Assembly (NCBI GenBank): GCA_032595675.1
Contig: JAVQMD010000002.1
Coordinates: 558,001-622,000 of the forward strand
Source of the DNA: Candidatus Electrothrix rattekaaiensis
Lineage (GTDB): Bacteria > Desulfobacterota > Desulfobulbia > Desulfobulbales > Desulfobulbaceae
Direction of reading: 5' to 3'
DNA length: 64,000 nucleotides
Part shown: positions 2,924-54,159 of the stretch, piece by piece
Layout: each line of letters starts with the position of its first letter
Numbering within the stretch: the first letter of the stretch is position 1
Notes under the pieces: generated by a model
What the model saw: the letters and a program-made list of their open reading frames with translations, nothing else
Told to the model about the DNA's origin: nothing
The model's database searches: none
Program-made: the position numbers and the translations under genes

Positions 2924-4201
2924 ATGAGAGAAATAACGCCGGTTAATACCTTAGATGCAGTTGTTGAAGTACCAGGCTCAAAGAGCCTGACCCAACGTGC
3001 CCTGATCGCTGCTGCCTTGGCTTGTGGCGAATCTATCCTTCTCGGGCCGCTTGCCAGTGAAGATACTGCCTACACCATGACCGCTCTTCGCCAGATGGGT
3101 ATAGACGTAGATGACAGCGACCCCGCTGCCTGGGTGGTGCAAGGGGCCGGGGGCAATATTCAGGTGCCGGAACAGGATATTTTTCTCGGCAATAACGGAA
3201 CCGCCACCCGCTTCCTGACCTCTGTTGCCGCCTTGGGAAAGGGACGCTTTAGGATCACCGGCGGGGATCGCATGGCGGAGCGGCCTATCGACCCCCTGAT
3301 TCAGGCCTTGCGGGGCTGGCGCGTGCAGATCCAGAGCGAGGCGGCCAACGGTTGTCCTCCCCTGTCCATTGATGCTGACGGGCTTTCCGGCGGCGAGACT
3401 GTGCTGCCGCAAGGAAAATCCAGTCAGTATCTTTCTTCGTTGCTGCTTGTTGCCCCGTATGCAGATGAAAAGGCTGGGTTGACGGTGGAGGGCGAGGTTT
3501 TTTCCCAGCCCTATGTCAAGATGACCCTAGCTGTGATGGCGGAGTTCGGCATCTGGTGTGAGGTGGCTCCGAACATGAATCATTTTCAGATTCCGCAAGG
3601 CTGCTACCGTGGCACCCGGTATCAGATTGAAGGCGATGCCTCCGGGGCCTCCTATTTCTGGGCTGCCGCCGCTGTGACAGGCGGGAAGGTCACGGTTGCC
3701 AATGTGCCGGTGCCTTCCTTACAGGGCGATGCGCAACTTGTCCCTCTACTGGAGCGGATGGGCTGCGAGGTGGAACGCCTTCAGGGGGGCATTGCCGTGC
3801 AGGGGCCGCAACAGCTGACGGGAATCGAGGTGGATATGGGCAATATGCCGGATGTGGCCCCGACCCTGGCGGTGGTGGCTGCCTTTGCCGAAGGAACCAC
3901 AGTGATTGATAATATCGCCCATCTGCGCATCAAGGAATGTGATCGGCTGGCGGTGATGGTCAGTGAGCTGCGGAAGATGGGAGCTGATATCGAGGAGGAA
4001 GAGGATCGGATGATTATTCACGGGCATGCTGGCGGGGCTAATCTGCACGGGGCCGACATTGCGACCTATGAGGATCATCGCATCGCCATGTGCTTTGCCG
4101 TGGCCGGGTTGGGGGTTGCCGGGGTGAAGGTTCATGGGGAGGAGTGCGTGGCGAAGTCCTTTCCTGATTTTTGGGAGCGGTTTGAGGGGATGTTGGGGTA
4201 G
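2924..4201 (+). CDS. aroA: 3-phosphoshikimate 1-carboxyvinyltransferase (EPSP synthase)
   Basis: Transfers enolpyruvyl from PEP to shikimate-3-phosphate. The ~425-aa protein has the VPGSKSLTQRAL phosphate loop, a GNNGTATR motif (canonical GNAGTA with Ala replaced by Asn), GKSSQYLSS, the catalytic aspartate in NMPDVAPTLAV, HLRIKECDRL, and the C-terminal YEDHRIAM and SFPDFWERF. The ATG at 2924 is chosen because homology begins there; starts further upstream would read through a REP-like palindrome. The last 13 codons are duplicated 1.24 kb downstream (5397-5435), around an inserted nuclease gene. Confidence 0.95.
   Translation: MREITPVNTLDAVVEVPGSKSLTQRALIAAALACGESILLGPLASEDTAYTMTALRQMGIDVDDSDPAAWVVQGAGGNIQVPEQDIFLGNNGTATRFLTSVAALGKGRFRITGGDRMAERPIDPLIQALRGWRVQIQSEAANGCPPLSIDADGLSGGETVLPQGKSSQYLSSLLLVAPYADEKAGLTVEGEVFSQPYVKMTLAVMAEFGIWCEVAPNMNHFQIPQGCYRGTRYQIEGDASGASYFWAAAAVTGGKVTVANVPVPSLQGDAQLVPLLERMGCEVERLQGGIAVQGPQQLTGIEVDMGNMPDVAPTLAVVAAFAEGTTVIDNIAHLRIKECDRLAVMVSELRKMGADIEEEEDRMIIHGHAGGANLHGADIATYEDHRIAMCFAVAGLGVAGVKVHGEECVAKSFPDFWERFEGMLG
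4154..4192 (+). repeat. Direct repeat, copy 1 (inside the aroA 3' end)
   Basis: 39 bases inside the last codons of aroA, starting AAGTCCTTTCC, recur without a mismatch at 5397-5435. With a few more upstream bases the match is about 44 of 45. The two copies bracket the DUF1016 nuclease gene, so they look like insertion boundaries or the trace of recombination at the aroA end. Confidence 0.9.
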
Positions 4202-4230
4202 GGGGATGATGCGGCTTCCGTACAAGAAAC

Positions 4231-5364
4231 TTGGATGACACGAGCATGTCCGTTGAAATGAAACAACAACTGACGTTTACAGATTTAATTCTGTCTATCC
4301 GGGATATTGATAGTGAACTTGCCGTCCGGGCAGGGCGTGCCGTTAATTACAGTCTTACTCTGCGTAACTGGTTTATCGGTTATCATATTACCGAATACGA
4401 ACAACACGGGGAAGATAGAGCCACTTATGGTGAAAAGCTGTTGCAAAGTCTTTCGATTCACTTGACAAAACAGGGAGTCAGCAGAACGGAAGAAAGAGAA
4501 TTACGGCGCTATAGAAGATTTTATCAGGTCTATCCTCAAATTCGGGACTCACTGACTCCCGAATTGCGTGAAAAGCTGTTATCGCAGTCACCACGTGAAT
4601 ATACCGTGGAAAAGGATGTTGCTCTTTCCGTTTTAACCGTTCCCGGACAGGAACTTCTTGCCCGCCTCTCCTTCACTCATTTTGTCGAACTGTTGAAATG
4701 CAATAATCCTGACCAGCGATTTTTTTACGAGATTGAGTGTATGCACGGGAACTGGTCGGTCCGTGAGTTGAGAAGGCAGATAGGCAGTCTTTATTATGAA
4801 CGTTCTGAACTCTCCGGAAATAAAAAGAAACTGGCCGAGCTGGCACAGTGTGATGCGGAAAAAGTAAATCCGAAACTCGCGATAAGAGACCCGTATGTTT
4901 TTGAGTTTCTCGGTCTGAAGCCGGTTGAGGTTATGAGCGAGTCTCATTTGGAAGATCAGCTTCTGGATAAATTGCAGGAGTTTCTCCTCGAATTAGGTCA
5001 TGGTTTCTGTTTCGAGGCACGTCAGAAGCGTATCCTTATAGGTGACAGCTATAATTTTGTTGATCTCGTCTTTTATCACCGTATATTGAAGTGCCATATC
5101 TTGGTGGAACTGAAATTGGAAAAGTTCGGTCATGAAAATATCGGCCAGCTAAACACCTATGTAAGCTGGTACAGGTACAACATGATGACTGAAGGAGACA
5201 ATCCGCCTGTGGGGCTTCTGCTCTGTACAGAAAAGGATCATGCGTTGGTGGAATACGCATTGGCCGGTATGGATAATGAACTTTTCGTTTCTAAGTATCA
5301 GCTTGAACTGCCGGACAAGAAGGAAATACAGCAGTTTGTCGAAAAACAAATCAGAGAAAGATGA
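4231..5364 (+). CDS. DUF1016 (YhcG-like) PD-(D/E)XK nuclease-domain protein
   Basis: A 377-aa protein with the two-part DUF1016 layout. The N-terminal helical part (about 15-170) carries the family signature around VNYSLTLRNWFIGYHITEY and LRRYRRFYQVYP. The C-terminal PD-(D/E)XK-like fold (about 225-350) carries the acidic residue in FVDLVFYH and ELK in HILVELKLEKF, followed by GQLNTYVSWY. Family members are predicted DNA nucleases common in accessory regions; their cellular role is not settled. The start could also be the ATG at 4246. The gene is single and flanked by exact copies of the aroA 3' end, so it was probably acquired as a one-gene module. Confidence 0.85.
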   Translation: MDDTSMSVEMKQQLTFTDLILSIRDIDSELAVRAGRAVNYSLTLRNWFIGYHITEYEQHGEDRATYGEKLLQSLSIHLTKQGVSRTEERELRRYRRFYQVYPQIRDSLTPELREKLLSQSPREYTVEKDVALSVLTVPGQELLARLSFTHFVELLKCNNPDQRFFYEIECMHGNWSVRELRRQIGSLYYERSELSGNKKKLAELAQCDAEKVNPKLAIRDPYVFEFLGLKPVEVMSESHLEDQLLDKLQEFLLELGHGFCFEARQKRILIGDSYNFVDLVFYHRILKCHILVELKLEKFGHENIGQLNTYVSWYRYNMMTEGDNPPVGLLLCTEKDHALVEYALAGMDNELFVSKYQLELPDKKEIQQFVEKQIRER

Positions 5365-5390
5365 GTCATTGTTCCACTTTGTTAGGCTGT

Positions 5391-5444
5391 GTGGCTAAGT
5401 CCTTTCCTGATTTTTGGGAGCGGTTTGAGGGGATGATGAAGTAG
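5391..5444 (+). pseudogene. Duplicated 3' fragment of aroA
   Basis: Reads in frame as VAKSFPDFWERFEGMMK and a stop, against VAKSFPDFWERFEGMLG in intact aroA. 39 bases (5397-5435) are identical to 4154-4192. No start codon or upstream aroA sequence accompanies it, so it is a non-functional remnant marking the far edge of the inserted DUF1016 gene. Confidence 0.85.
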
Positions 5445-5491
5445 AGGCTGGGGGTAGATTTGCGTGTATGGTGTGCTGTGAGACGTGGTTC

Positions 5492-6054: not shown

Positions 6055-6245
6055 AATCATACCCAAGGATAGCTCGAACCATACCCCGGTATACCTTCTT
6101 CCTCTCCCGCGATAGGCTGAGGCATACCAGAGGATAGGGTCAGGCATACCAAGCAATAGGTTTACCCTATCCGCAGATACCCTGAGGCATACCCAAGGAT
6201 AGGCTGAGGCATACCCAGGGATAGGGTCAGCCATACCCGACTATA
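6055..6245 (+). repeat. Array of degenerate ~22-bp repeats
   Basis: At least six imperfect units of the form GATAGGCTGAGGCATACCC, with variants GATAGGGTCAGGCATACC and TATAGG, lie in tandem; the clearest run is 6111-6242 with a 22-bp step. The reverse complement of the same motif makes up the 43-bp array at 57665-57780, so this is a dispersed family. Units contain CCTATC/GATAGG half-palindromes. No protein product is convincing in either frame. Confidence 0.75.
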
Positions 6246-6365: not shown

Positions 6366-6830
6366 ATGCCTGACAATCCGAACAATCCCAACACCCCGAG
6401 CAACCCGCCGACCCTGGCGGACAAGCAGATCGACCTGTCGCCCTTTGCGTTGATGGACCTTGATCCCGAGGAAATCCGCAAACTCCCCAAGCCCAAGACG
6501 GATTTTGCTGAGGTTGCCCGGCAGGTACTGGCCCTCTATCCTGAGTACGAAGACGAGCTGCGCCTGAGCGAGGAGGACTTTGACCCGGCCAAGGTCGCGG
6601 AGCATCTTGATCTGGCTGAGGAGCTGATTCCCTATGCCGAATGGCTGGTAAGACGGACCGAGCAGGTGCGGGAGACCCGTCTGGTGCATCTTGCCGATGC
6701 CTACCGGGGAGTGCTTGCCCTGTATCACCGGTCCCAGGCTGCGGAAGCCTTTGATCCCCGGGTGGGCTATGCCTTTGCCTTTCTGGCTGATTACTTCGGC
6801 GTGGGTAAAAAAATGGGAAATAAAGAGTAG
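6366..6830 (+). CDS. Hypothetical acidic helical protein
   Basis: A 154-aa protein I do not recognise. The N-terminus is rich in Pro and Asn (PDNPNNPNTPSNPP), followed by a mostly helical, acidic body with a LALYPEYEDELRLSEEDFDP segment and a C-terminal YAFAFLADYFGVGKK. The ATG at 6366 is chosen because GGAG lies eight bases upstream; a start at 6315 lacks such a site. There is no signal peptide or membrane segment. It lies between a repeat array and a nuclease gene in an accessory stretch. Confidence 0.7.
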   Translation: MPDNPNNPNTPSNPPTLADKQIDLSPFALMDLDPEEIRKLPKPKTDFAEVARQVLALYPEYEDELRLSEEDFDPAKVAEHLDLAEELIPYAEWLVRRTEQVRETRLVHLADAYRGVLALYHRSQAAEAFDPRVGYAFAFLADYFGVGKKMGNKE

Positions 6831-6955: not shown

Positions 6956-7765
6956 TTACAAATCATCGAACAGCGATAACTGATGCACACCGTTCGTTTT
7001 CAGGTCAATCTTTCGCGCAACCATCTTGCCTTCATCCACTCCCCCGGCATGATTGATGGTCTCCGTGATGTTACGAATACAGTAGCTCTCCATTTGCTCC
7101 TGAACCTGCTGAGTCGTAAATCGTAGCACTTTCCAGCCAGCGGCTGCCAAGGCATTGTTTCGGCGATTATCCTCAGCTGTTTTTTTTGCATGATAGCTGT
7201 CACCGTCAGTTTCGATATCTATCTTTGCTTCAGAGCAATAGACGGCGAAATCCAAGGCATAATTTTGTTTATCGACCTTTACGAACTCCTGTCGTTCAGC
7301 AAGAATGTTGTGGCGTTTAAATTCCGCCCACAAACGGTCTTCCAAAGGGCTTTCGTCGTACAGATCATTAATTTCAGCCGCACGGATGAATTTATACCAT
7401 GTTGTCGGAATAAAGATAATTCTGCGTCGTCGCCGACTGAAGATCGGTTTCGGTAATTTTTGTAACGGATTCAGGATGAGCTGATAATATTGCCGGTTAC
7501 TTTTACGATTGGGCATCTCGTCGGGAAAGAGCTGCTGTCTATAGACTTTACGAACTCGAATGACTTTCGTATAATAGCTGATTGAATAGGCTTCCGCTCC
7601 GAACACTTTTGTTTGATAGAAAGCTATCCACTGCGGCGGCCAGCGATTTTTCAGCCATTTATGCGCACTGCTGACCGGGATACGATACCAGTGTCGGTCA
7701 TGCACGATGGAGAAGTCCCGTTTATTATTGAGCAGAGCGATTAAAACTTCACCTTGATCAGACAT
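6956..7765 (-). CDS. DUF559/MTES_1575-like PD-(D/E)XK endonuclease
   Basis: A 269-aa protein. The N-terminal ~120 residues are a basic region I do not recognise (it includes an RRRRR run). The C-terminal half (about 135-230) looks like the Vsr/DUF559 nuclease fold: SPLEDRLWAEFKRH, then DFAVYCSEAKIDIETDGDSYH as the metal-binding core, and NNALAAAGWKVLRFT as the closing helix-strand. These folds cut DNA in very-short-patch repair, restriction or mobile elements. It is the only minus-strand gene between plus-strand neighbours and is flanked by the intergenic element, which fits acquisition as a unit. Confidence 0.75.
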   Translation of the reverse strand: MSDQGEVLIALLNNKRDFSIVHDRHWYRIPVSSAHKWLKNRWPPQWIAFYQTKVFGAEAYSISYYTKVIRVRKVYRQQLFPDEMPNRKSNRQYYQLILNPLQKLPKPIFSRRRRRIIFIPTTWYKFIRAAEINDLYDESPLEDRLWAEFKRHNILAERQEFVKVDKQNYALDFAVYCSEAKIDIETDGDSYHAKKTAEDNRRNNALAAAGWKVLRFTTQQVQEQMESYCIRNITETINHAGGVDEGKMVARKIDLKTNGVHQLSLFDDL

Positions 7766-7912
7766 TGATTTTGTATCGCAATCCTGCGGGTTCGAGTATA
7801 AGCAATCGCTTTATTCTATGATTGCAAGAGGCTTTTTATGCGTAATGACCACGGCGGGTTAAGGTATTGCGTTGTTCTGTTTATGTCAAGAAAAAAGCAG
7901 GTTGGCTTACTT

Positions 7913-7980
7913 GGCAGCCGGGTAGGATGCAGCACCAGCACAAAAAAGATGCATGGAATGCAGTATCCTGCCAAAGGAAA
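7913..7980. repeat. Intergenic repeat element, copy B
   Basis: Contains AGCCGGGTAGGATGCAGC, CAGCACAAAAAA and GCATGGAATGCAGTATCC. TTGGCA near the start pairs with TGCCAA at the end and GGAT with ATCC inside, giving a hairpin with an internal bulge. It lies 24 bases before the Rpn-family gene and is clearly related to copy C. Confidence 0.6.
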
Positions 7981-8003
7981 AAAGTAAATCCAGGTGATTA
8001 ATT

Positions 8004-8873
8004 ATGCAGGATAAACCGCTATTTCACGGGCGGCTGAAATACGATGTGTTTTTCAAGAAAATTTTTTATCAGAAACACATCCTGAAAGCTTTTCTTAATG
8101 CTGCATTAGCACCCGAATTGTCATCTCCCATTGTTGATCTTTCCTATGAACCCACAGAATTTATTATCACGGGACCGGCAAAGCTCATTCAGAAAACAAA
8201 GCATGATGTCATAGACGTTTTTTGCATCACCGAGCAGAATCAACGAATTCTTGTGGAACTGCAAAAAGGTACTGATGCACGGGCAATGGCACGGTTTCTT
8301 GATTATCAGTGCCGAAACTATTCCAGTCAATTTCAAACCGGCTCGGAATATAACGAAGTTCTTTCGTGCTACAGTATCTGCTGGTTCTTCGAGTTGCAGC
8401 CGCCTCATAAGCGAATCAAAGAAATTATCAGACTAACATCGGACTGCAAAAAAACAGCGTGGGATTTTGCTTGGGAGATCATCGCGCTCTATCCGAAAAA
8501 TATCCCTGAAAGCCATATTAAGCGGCAGCAGGTTAATCAGCTTGAAGAGTGGCTCCTTCTTGATGTTGTTCAGGACATGGACACAGCCCGTACAATGCAC
8601 GGGTTGTTGCGCACGCAGGAAGTCAAGGAGGCATTCAGTCAAATGGATTTATCAGACTTGTCTGAAGAGCAGATCCGGCGTATTATTTTTGAGGAACAAT
8701 ATGCGGAGAATGTAGATTTATATGAGGAAAAACTGCGCGAGCGGGAAAGAAAAAACAAGGTTGAGATCGCTAAAAAATTATTGGCGCAGGGTGTTCAGAT
8801 CGACGTTGTTGCCCGTTCGACCGGAATAGAAGCGCAGGAATTAGAGAAGATCAAGCAGTCATTAGGTCAATGA
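8004..8873 (+). CDS. Rpn-family recombination-promoting nuclease / PD-(D/E)XK transposase-like protein
   Basis: A 289-aa protein of the Rpn/PDDEXK_2 family. The N-terminal nuclease core shows LKYDVFFKKIFYQK, the acidic residue in HDVIDVFCIT, and ELQK in QRILVELQKG, which stands for the (D/E)XK motif. DYQCRNYSSQF and the STR-type helical region follow. The C-terminus (about 235-289) is a charged coiled coil rich in Glu and Lys ending in a helix-turn-helix-like QGVQIDVVARSTGIEAQEL. Family members such as E. coli RpnA are DNA endonucleases linked to recombination. The repeat element lies on both sides. Confidence 0.85.
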   Translation: MQDKPLFHGRLKYDVFFKKIFYQKHILKAFLNAALAPELSSPIVDLSYEPTEFIITGPAKLIQKTKHDVIDVFCITEQNQRILVELQKGTDARAMARFLDYQCRNYSSQFQTGSEYNEVLSCYSICWFFELQPPHKRIKEIIRLTSDCKKTAWDFAWEIIALYPKNIPESHIKRQQVNQLEEWLLLDVVQDMDTARTMHGLLRTQEVKEAFSQMDLSDLSEEQIRRIIFEEQYAENVDLYEEKLRERERKNKVEIAKKLLAQGVQIDVVARSTGIEAQELEKIKQSLGQ

Positions 8874-8890
8874 TTTCCGGTCAGATTAAA

Positions 8891-8949
8891 GAGTAGCCGG
8901 GTGGGCGGCTCCGCACAAAAAATGGGGCATGGAATGCATCCTGCAAGTC
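8891..8949. repeat. Intergenic repeat element, copy C
   Basis: Contains TAGCCGGGTGGGCGGCTCC, GCACAAAAAATGGGGC and ATGGAATGCATCCTGCAA. It aligns with copies A and B along most of its length and separates the Rpn gene from yajD. A shorter related piece, AAGCCGGGTAGGGCGCAGG, follows yajD at about 9314-9332. Confidence 0.6.
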
Positions 8950-8980
8950 TGTTATATTTTGCCGATCGAGATAAAATGAA

Positions 8981-9307
8981 ATGAAAAAACTTGATTATCG
9001 CAATCAGGCCTTGAAAATTCTGCCGTGGGTTTGTGCAAAGTGCGGTCGTGATTTTTCAGGCAAAAAACTTCGCGAGCTGACGGTCCATCACAAAGATCAT
9101 AATTATAAAAATAATCCTCCAGACGGCAGCAACTGGGAGCTGTTGTGCCTGTATTGTCATGATAACGAGCACTCCCGTTTTTTGGATGCCGAATGGTTGC
9201 CAACGCATAATGCAGATAACGAGAAAACAGCAACAGTATCCCAGACTCCTTTTGCAAACCTCGATAAACTGTTATCTGGCAAGAAAAATAGCAAATCAGA
9301 AGAATAA
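8981..9307 (+). CDS. yajD: YajD-family HNH nuclease
   Basis: A 108-aa protein close to E. coli YajD from end to end. It has the zinc pair CAKC at about residues 18-21, the HNH core LRELTVHHKDHNYKNNPPDGSNWELL, and the second zinc pair plus catalytic histidine in CLYCHDNEH. The family is predicted to nick or cut nucleic acid; no specific role is established. It follows copy C of the intergenic element and is followed by a partial copy. Confidence 0.88.
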   Translation: MKKLDYRNQALKILPWVCAKCGRDFSGKKLRELTVHHKDHNYKNNPPDGSNWELLCLYCHDNEHSRFLDAEWLPTHNADNEKTATVSQTPFANLDKLLSGKKNSKSEE

Positions 9308-52678: not shown

Positions 52679-53115
52679 CAAATAATACTCCGTCTCACCG
52701 GCAGGCCAATAGTTTCCACCACCGTTGTATTTTTTCTTCGGCTGGCTTCATCTACAGTTATAAAACGACCGGTTACAGCATCACGCCCTCTCATAGTTAC
52801 CTTTCGCCTTGTAACAGGAATAGTAGGAAGACATGACCTCCGCAACCCCTGTGTCTCTAAAGAAGGAGTAGGAAGACAAGTAATTGAAACCCTCTGTCTC
52901 ATTGCAGGAGCAGCAGGAAGACATGTACCTGACCCCCTCTGTCTCATTGCAGGAGCAGCAGGAAGACAGGTACCTGACCCCCTCTGTCTCATTGCAGGAG
53001 CAGTAGGAAGACGAATAGTTTGAACTAAAGCCTCACTTTTTCTTAGTTGAGCTTCATCAATAGTTAAAAATCGACCGGTTATTGCATCACGTCCAATACT
53101 TTTTGTTTTAGTCAT
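52678..53115 (-). CDS. Protein with two GRDA-type motifs around 15-aa repeats
   Basis: A 145-aa protein. The motif GRDAITGRFLTIDEA (8-22) is repeated as GRDAVTGRFITVDEA (110-124); single copies of this motif make up small (~60 aa) unknown proteins common in accessory regions. Between them (39-98) are four 15-residue repeats, such as APAMRQRGSGTCLPA, each ending CLP plus Ala or Thr, coded by 45-bp DNA repeats. The two ends look like the N- and C-terminal parts of one small protein separated by repeat expansion. Function unknown. It follows the DUF2188 gene on the same strand. Confidence 0.65.
   Translation of the reverse strand: MTKTKSIGRDAITGRFLTIDEAQLRKSEALVQTIRLPTAPAMRQRGSGTCLPAAPAMRQRGSGTCLPAAPAMRQRVSITCLPTPSLETQGLRRSCLPTIPVTRRKVTMRGRDAVTGRFITVDEASRRKNTTVVETIGLPVRRSII
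52822..53001 (-). repeat. 45-bp tandem repeats within the GRDA gene
   Basis: Four units of 45 bp (codons 39-98 of the minus-strand gene). Three are nearly identical (shared TCATTGCAGGAGCAG...), the fourth has diverged. The frame stays open, so expansion or contraction would change the protein by 15 residues per unit. Confidence 0.8.
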
Positions 53116-53873: not shown

Positions 53874-53969
53874 ACCGTAGTTTAGATCAAACTACCGTAG
53901 TACTTTGGATCAAACTACCGTAGTACTTTGGAGTAAAGTACCGTAGTACTTTAGATCAAACTACCGTAG
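53874..53969. repeat. Iteron-like palindromic repeats
   Basis: Five cores of ACCGTAG occur at 53874, 53894, 53917, 53940 and 53963 (steps 20, 23, 23, 23). Around them runs a 23-bp unit, CTACCGTAGTACTTTGGAT-like. One unit, AAAGTAC CGTA GTACTTT, is a perfect hairpin. Regularly spaced palindromes like this suit a DNA-binding protein, a replication or partition site, or a mobile-element end. Confidence 0.75.
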
Positions 53970-54159
53970 TACTTTTAAAAAAAGAACGATAGTGTTTTTC
54001 AGCAAAGCCCGCCCGTGTCGGATTCAGGCCGTAATCCTTTGGCAATCTTAAAAAAATGCTTGACAGGAGGAGCTGAACAACGGCAATCACATCAAAACGC
54101 CTGCGTATCAAGGTGCTTCAGGATCTGGCCGAGGAGCGGATGCAGAGCAAAACTGAGAG

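What the first reader, a model, noticed from the sequence alone, without database searches (positions are those of the whole stretch)
4154..5444. Exact duplicate of the aroA 3' end brackets a DUF1016 nuclease gene
39 identical bases at 4154-4192 and 5397-5435 flank exactly one gene. The first copy completes aroA, the second is a remnant coding VAKSFPDFWERFEGMMK. Insertion with target duplication, site-specific integration at the gene end, or gene capture from a donor strain would give this.
Basis: seen in the sequence. Interest (0 to 1): 0.7.

Follow-up and report, generated by a model that had tools for sequence, protein, structure and literature searches.

The report
Nuclease gene inserted behind aroA
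A single gene for a predicted DNA-cutting enzyme has been slipped in just behind an essential amino-acid gene, leaving a second copy of that gene's end as a scar; related bacteria show the site full, decayed or without the insert, and the same kind of scar turns up beside other mobile single genes, so it marks how such genes are gained.

Summary
The repeat is real (39/39 identical, 60 nt at 90%), the longest exact direct repeat in the window. Between the copies lies a DUF1016/YhcG PD-(D/E)XK nuclease gene, PADLOC candidate defence family PDC-S02. Among 8 genomes of the genus it sits behind aroA in 3, survives as fragments in 2, and was not detected in 3 (one examined for only 449 bp). It is under purifying selection (dN/dS about 0.1); its synonymous divergence is below that of the core genes tested.

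The scar is not unique. Gene-end duplications bracket 15 of 135 DUF1016 genes (two share the aroA event) against 4 of 296 neighbouring genes, but also 4 of 94 Fic and AbiEii genes (p=0.087), so nuclease-specific homing is not supported. A second case (pfkB; 7 relatives lack the insert there) has the recipient's own gene end displaced and the working end attached to the incoming unit. In R-M-type targets the copies differ mainly at third codon positions.

Best reading: gene gain by recombination in which incoming DNA carried the neighbouring gene's end (one-sided homology), close to the known "insertion with long target duplication" of R-M genes and to fungal mitochondrial mORFs. Plain target duplication remains possible.

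The parts
2924..4201 (+). aroA (EPSP synthase), intact, completed by repeat copy 1
   Evidence: PF00275 E 3e-121; TIGR01356 E 2e-135
4145..4204 (+). Repeat copy 1: 3' end of functional aroA (exact core 4154-4192)
4231..5364 (+). DUF1016/YhcG PD-(D/E)XK nuclease gene (TTG at 4231; in-frame ATG at 4246 and 4258)
   Evidence: Pfam; PADLOC PDC-S02 E 1e-126; invariant D278 and L294-K295 in a 13-sequence family alignment; dN/dS 0.10-0.11
5388..5447 (+). Repeat copy 2: displaced aroA 3' end (reads CVAKSFPDFWERFEGMMK-stop; exact core 5397-5435)
   Evidence: second tails in G001 and G007, and the start of one at the end of the G005 contig

Best explanation
The DUF1016/YhcG nuclease gene is an accessory single-gene insert, gained behind aroA by a recombination event that left two aroA 3' ends. 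SHOWN: the layout; the same layout in three species of the genus (in one of them, G005, the second tail is cut by a contig end), decayed fragments in two, and one-tail sites without detected nuclease in three; purifying selection on the nuclease; similar gene-end duplications beside other DUF1016 genes and, less often, beside Fic and AbiEii genes. INFERRED: incoming DNA carried the neighbouring gene's end plus the nuclease; one side joined by homology within that gene (here aroA), the other illegitimately, so the working gene takes the incoming end and the recipient's own end is left as a remnant. The two ends then allow loss or exchange by ordinary recombination. The nuclease is probably kept for a host function, most likely DNA restriction or phage defence; it is not shown to drive its own insertion.
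For: Occupied, decayed and insert-free aroA sites in 8 genomes of one genus. Nuclease dN/dS 0.10-0.11. G000-G001 dS 0.45 for the nuclease vs 0.73-1.09 for seven core genes; G000-G005 0.29 vs 0.39-0.85 for four, consistent with exchange at the same site. Gene-end duplications at 15/135 single-copy DUF1016 genes vs 4/296 neighbouring genes, p=2e-5. pfkB case: G238 keeps the native pfkB leader and a 5' remnant in front of DUF1016, while the DUF1016-pfkB junction is shared with G329; of the 8 other genomes of that genus, 7 have pfkB without the insert there and 1 gave no pfkB match. In five R-M/methylase/ORF6N targets 37 of 52 differences between copies are at third codon positions (p=3e-8 vs 1/3; p=0.026 vs 0.57, my guess of the most that in-place decay would give), as expected if both copies were coding while they diverged.
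Against: For six other targets, including aroA twice, the third-position share is 12/26, not different from decay. In G238 the two pfkB copies share a leader variant that G329 lacks, which fits in-place duplication. Some cases are intergenic with identical copies (L127, 64/64), which look like plain target duplication. The last aroA codons are unusually conserved in nuclease-free species too, so the 39-base identity is weak evidence on age or source. The accessory ORF at 6366-6830 also has low dS (0.28), so low dS is not special to the nuclease.
Confidence: 0.55

Rival explanations
1. Insertion with long target duplication: the nuclease gene entered a staggered break or paired nicks 30-200 bp apart, and fill-in copied the recipient's own aroA end on both sides, as proposed for R-M genes (the paired-nick detail is my own suggestion).
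For: Duplications are variable, 33-213 nt, the order reported for R-M insertions (passages in PMC3874152 and PMC3031569). L127 copies are 64/64 identical in an intergenic site. Insert-free sites exist.
Against: Copies in R-M-type genes differ mainly at third positions. G329 shares the DUF1016-pfkB junction of G238 but no pfkB remnant was found in front of it.
Confidence: 0.3
2. Bacterial homing element: the DUF1016 nuclease cuts gene ends and promotes its own transfer together with a replacement end, like fungal mitochondrial mORFs.
For: Layout like that of mORFs (PMC3630166, passages). Present/decayed/absent mix in the genus. Nuclease dS lower than core genes. Bracketing repeats at E<=1e-12 more frequent than for Fic+AbiEii (21/135 vs 4/94, p=0.009). 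Nuclease fold matches, best archaeal NucS/EndoMS.
Against: Fic and AbiEii genes, other families, show gene-end duplications too (4/94 vs 15/135, p=0.087), and at E<=1e-5 their bracketing repeats are not significantly rarer (12/94 vs 26/135, p=0.21). A full duplication leaves any site inside the repeat intact on both sides. Strong purifying selection fits a host function.
Confidence: 0.1
3. No insertion: an older tandem duplication of the aroA end with the nuclease already nearby, or a chance repeat.
For: The interval between aroA and trxA is variable in gene content across the genus.
Against: 39 exact bases are far beyond chance. Single-tail sites without detected nuclease are found in relatives, and second tails occur together with nuclease sequence.
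Confidence: 0.05

Closest known systems
Insertion with long target duplication of restriction-modification genes (Nobusato et al. 2000; Furuta et al. 2010; seen only as described in passages of PMC3031569, PMC3874152, PMC1643837)
   Same: Gene insert without transposase, long and variable direct duplication of the order of 100 bp, site without the insert in a relative
   Different: Insert is a solitary DUF1016 nuclease rather than an R-M system; in several cases the copies look like separate alleles
Fungal mitochondrial mORFs (Allomyces atp6, Glomus atp6/atp9/cox2/nad3; PMC3630166, passages)
   Same: Endonuclease ORF at a gene's 3' end, gene end duplicated, working gene uses the end beside the insert
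   Different: Different nuclease families; here 5' ends can be duplicated too; self-driven mobility not shown and the scar not specific
Homology-facilitated illegitimate recombination (start of the abstract of PMC3240628, in the listing)
   Same: One homologous and one illegitimate join integrate DNA
   Different: Here inferred from the layout, not observed
YhcG/DUF1016 family, PADLOC candidate PDC-S02
   Same: Same domains and conserved residues; family known from mobile elements (PMC4316617, passages) and often behind type I R-M methylase genes
   Different: This copy sits behind aroA, not in an R-M locus

Membership tests
DUF1016/YhcG (PF17761 + PF06250) | Both Pfam domains above cut-off | tested here: met
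   95.9 bits (cut-off 32.8) and 181.9 bits (cut-off 32.5)
DUF1016/YhcG (PF17761 + PF06250) | PD-(D/E)XK catalytic residues kept | tested here: met
   D278 and L294-K295 invariant in 13 sequences; the acid before L294 is E here and D in some relatives (read)
Candidate defence system PDC-S02 | PADLOC model match | tested here: met
   E 1.2e-126
Candidate defence system PDC-S02 | Protection against phage | not testable with these tools
   no experiment
Insertion with long target duplication | Long variable direct duplication and a site without the insert in a relative | tested here: met
Insertion with long target duplication | Both copies derive from the recipient's target | tested here: inconclusive
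mORF-like homing element | Gene end beside the nuclease is foreign, displaced end is native | tested here: inconclusive
   supported at pfkB; undecided at aroA
mORF-like homing element | Gene-end duplication specific to the nuclease | tested here: not met
   15/135 vs Fic+AbiEii 4/94, p=0.087
Transposon / insertion sequence | Transposase in the insert, short duplication of fixed length | tested here: not met
   one gene only, not a transposase; duplications 33-213 nt
Integrase-type island at a gene 3' end | Integrase in the insert and a constant att core | tested here: not met
   no integrase in the insert; duplicated sequence differs by site

The most novel reading that the evidence does not exclude
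DUF1016/YhcG proteins are the bacterial counterpart of mitochondrial mORFs: free-standing PD-(D/E)XK nucleases that break gene ends and spread together with a replacement gene end, using type I R-M operons as favoured homes and essential genes such as aroA as safe sites.
Probability: 0.1. Interest if true: 0.8.

Novelty: new variant of a known kind. Interest (0 to 1): 0.42.

Why it matters
How single genes without transposases or integrases enter genomes is poorly understood. A countable scar, the duplicated end of a neighbouring gene, makes such gains visible and, in principle, dateable. Here it is tied to a widespread uncharacterised nuclease family that sits behind an hsdM-type methylase gene in about a fifth of the cases scanned, and to an essential gene where occupied, decayed and insert-free sites can be compared. 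It also offers a defined substrate for testing whether these nucleases promote their own gain.

Tried and rejected
Homing driven by the nuclease was my early favourite, because the rate of bracketing repeats looked high against neighbouring genes (31/155 vs 13/296 at E<=1e-5). Controls with other mobile single genes weakened it. At E<=1e-5 Fic+AbiEii gave 12/94 (Fic 10/47, AbiEii 2/47) against 26/135 for single-copy DUF1016 (p=0.21). At E<=1e-12 it was 4/94 vs 21/135 (p=0.009). Rpn genes, PD-(D/E)XK themselves, gave 4/22; two of these (L285, L306) have an upstream copy that runs into the gene's own start and look like tandem paralogues. I left Rpn out of the later comparison.

Native-flank reasoning at aroA was dropped: what follows each aroA tail differs in most of the genomes, and the motif behind copy 1 resembles two other sites of the window.

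E. coli yhcG was tried as a polymorphic site: no strong direct repeat at its flanks in K-12 (best 16 bp, E 0.37). 3240 of 5426 E. coli genomes hold at least 80% of the yhcF-yhcG-nanQ query. Not pursued.

The hsdS case in G007 (L263) gave no empty site: the best match in sister genome G004 was a 69% match inside another DUF1016 gene.

Gene X, whose first 21 codons lie between DUF1016 and pfkB in G238: no match in the plasmid collection, three weak hits and no convincing one in my loci.

In one search I translated the pfkB-like kinase in a wrong frame; that search served only to find the gene start, and its identity values are not used.

Rows dropped: 168 clusters to 155 for short flanks; 20 of 155 loci with a second DUF1016 copy or fragment (5 of these were positive). 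From the pooled third-position count I left out five rows: L264 (6/6 third positions, but an Rpn-like gene of a multi-copy family), L141 (14/27), L109 (4/9), L108 (0/3) and L160 (0/0), for doubtful frame, decay or tandem arrangement; L268 was added by hand. All 15 rows together are 68 third of 117. L234 (REP-like) and L265 (terminator-like) repeats are counted in the bracket totals but are probably not insertion scars; L204 is flanked by two related genes.

Full report
OBSERVATION. Window 4154-4192 and 5397-5435 are identical, inside a 60-nt match of 90% (4145-4204 / 5388-5447). It is the longest exact direct repeat in the window; in 20 first-order Markov sequences of the same length the longest was 17. 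Copy 1 completes aroA. Copy 2 is a remnant. The gene between them has the DUF1016_N and YhcG_C domains and matches PADLOC's candidate defence family PDC-S02 (E 1e-126). An AlphaFold2 model (mean pLDDT 72, pTM 0.44) has best PDB matches to archaeal NucS/EndoMS nucleases (E 3e-5) and, more weakly, to Card1 (E 1.6e-3) and Can2 (E about 0.01). No solved relative was found by sequence (one hit at E 0.11).

OCCUPIED, DECAYED AND INSERT-FREE SITES. Of 8 genomes of the window's genus (G000-G007), the nuclease sits behind aroA in three: G000, G005 and G001. G001 has a second, diverged tail. The G005 contig ends some 11-15 bases into its second tail, so that copy is seen only in part. G007 has an 85-bp piece of the nuclease (74%) and a degenerate second tail. 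G006 has a 71-bp piece at 90%, about 1.4 kb further down. No nuclease sequence was found behind aroA in G003 (3.2 kb examined; only weak hits of 20-33 bp), G004 (5.3 kb, no hit) or G002 (only 449 bp to the contig end; one hit of 27 bp to the spacer between aroA and the nuclease). The trxA-trxB stretch is found downstream of aroA in G000, G001, G003, G006, G007 and G004; the contigs of G005 and G002 end before. The interval in between is variable in content. The nuclease has dN/dS 0.10-0.11. Its dS is 0.45 between G000 and G001, against 0.73-1.09 for seven core genes, and 0.29 between G000 and G005, against 0.39-0.85 for four. The names aroD, aroE, trxA, trxB and livH are my reading of the translations (recalled, not scanned); aroA and the dihydroorotate dehydrogenase gene were scanned. 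The low dS fits exchange of the nuclease between species at the same site after they split, with the caution that the accessory ORF at 6366-6830 is also low (0.28).

IS IT GENERAL? From 80 named loci (the best 80 of 583 confirmed, ranked by similarity to the window's protein, so biased to it) and DUF1016 places in genomes of the same genus, order and phylum, 183 stretches in all, I took 180 full-length genes in 171 stretches, 168 after clustering at 90%, 155 with at least 400 bp on both sides. A direct repeat brackets 31/155 at E<=1e-5 and 25/155 at E<=1e-12. Other genes of the same loci gave 13/296 and 7/296; swapped flanks gave 0 (155 drawn, same-locus pairs skipped). Without the 20 loci that hold a second DUF1016 copy or fragment the figures are 26/135 and 21/135. 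Fic and AbiEii genes, other mobile single genes, gave 12/94 and 4/94. Counting only repeats that include the end of an adjacent ORF of at least 200 aa: DUF1016 15/135, neighbours 4/296 (p=2e-5; two of the four are tandem-like repeats of over 600 nt in one locus), Fic 2/47, AbiEii 2/47 (together p=0.087). Of the 15, the window and L065 are the same aroA event in two species. So gene-end duplication goes with inserted single genes and is not demonstrably special to this nuclease.

WHICH GENE ENDS. 3' ends: aroA, hsdS (L263), hsdM (L107), hsdR (L164), class II ribonucleotide reductase (L143; the class is recalled), an ABC ATPase (L116), an ORF6N protein (L266). 5' ends: DUF1156 (L267), pfkB (L213). 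In L268 the copy lies some 380 bp beyond a shortened hsdM ORF and reads like an HsdM C-terminus (recalled); the automatic count filed it under an opposite-strand ORF. The remaining four (L264, an Rpn-like gene by recall; L141; L109; L108) are weaker. Of 140 upstream neighbours scanned (of 149; 7 over 1,100 aa, the aroA of L065 and a DUF1016 neighbour in L160 were left out), 30 have an N6_Mtase domain and 28 HsdM_N. Downstream neighbours were not scanned as a set.

MECHANISM. In pfkB, G238 and G329 share the unit DUF1016 - 21-codon fragment of an unknown gene - pfkB. Of the 8 other genomes of that genus, seven (G328, G218, G157, G298, G316, G076, G040) have pfkB without the insert at that place; the eighth, G330, gave no pfkB match. 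In G238 the native pfkB leader and a decayed pfkB 5' end lie in front of DUF1016. In G329 none was found there, and the similarity of the two genomes begins at the DUF1016 start. This fits an incoming unit that carried the pfkB end. Against it, the two pfkB ends of G238 share a leader variant not seen in G329. In R-M/methylase/ORF6N targets (L263, L266, L267, L107, L268) 37 of 52 differences between copies are at third positions; in six other targets 12 of 26. The first set argues that both copies were coding while they diverged; the second does not decide.

KNOWN RELATIVES. R-M genes can insert with long, variable target duplications of the order of 100 bp (passages in PMC3031569, PMC3874152 and PMC1643837; of the primary papers one look-up was tried and not held). 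Fungal mitochondrial mORFs place an endonuclease ORF and a foreign C-terminal end behind a host gene and displace the native end (PMC3630166, passages). Homology-facilitated illegitimate recombination gives one homologous and one illegitimate join (PMC3240628, start of abstract in a listing). YhcG was assigned to PD-(D/E)XK in PMC1189080 (passages), which noted one family member beside a type I R-M cluster; PMC4316617 (passages) notes DUF1016 genes on mobile elements. I found no paper describing gene-end duplication around DUF1016; my searches were 'DUF1016/YhcG', 'long target duplication', a homing/target-duplication set, 'PDC-S02', a fungal homing set and a hsdM/hsdS set, of which I saw listings and the passages named.

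VERDICT. A real insertion scar with good comparative support: a new variant of a known kind of gene gain. The nuclease is the cargo; that it is also the agent is unproven.

Noticed in passing
window 4151-4201 (aroA 3' end): The last 17 codons of aroA have the highest third-position conservation of the whole gene across the 8 genomes (0.855 vs mean 0.631, top of 417 windows, two windows tied), also between genomes without the nuclease.
   Followed up: partly
window 6956-9307: Three more nuclease-like genes lie between aroA and trxA: DUF559 (minus strand), an Rpn-like PDDEXK_2 gene and an HNH gene; the interval is variable across the genus.
   Followed up: partly
window 6058-6245: Array of imperfect units spaced 22 nt or near multiples of it (CATACCC..GGATAGG) in an intergenic stretch, with similar stretches behind aroA in G001 and G002.
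   Followed up: no
window 52890-53003 and 53881-53975: Two clusters of short-period exact repeats, 22-34 bases.
   Followed up: no
L066 5446-6556: The next closest DUF1016 homologue (75% over its C-terminal part; genome G018) is split over two frames and lies between two large ORFs that I take, from recall, for a restriction helicase and a methylase.
   Followed up: no
L444 and L340: Fic genes with gene-end duplications of a phage-integrase gene (138 bp, 93%) and an hsdM gene (25 bp, 92%).
   Followed up: partly
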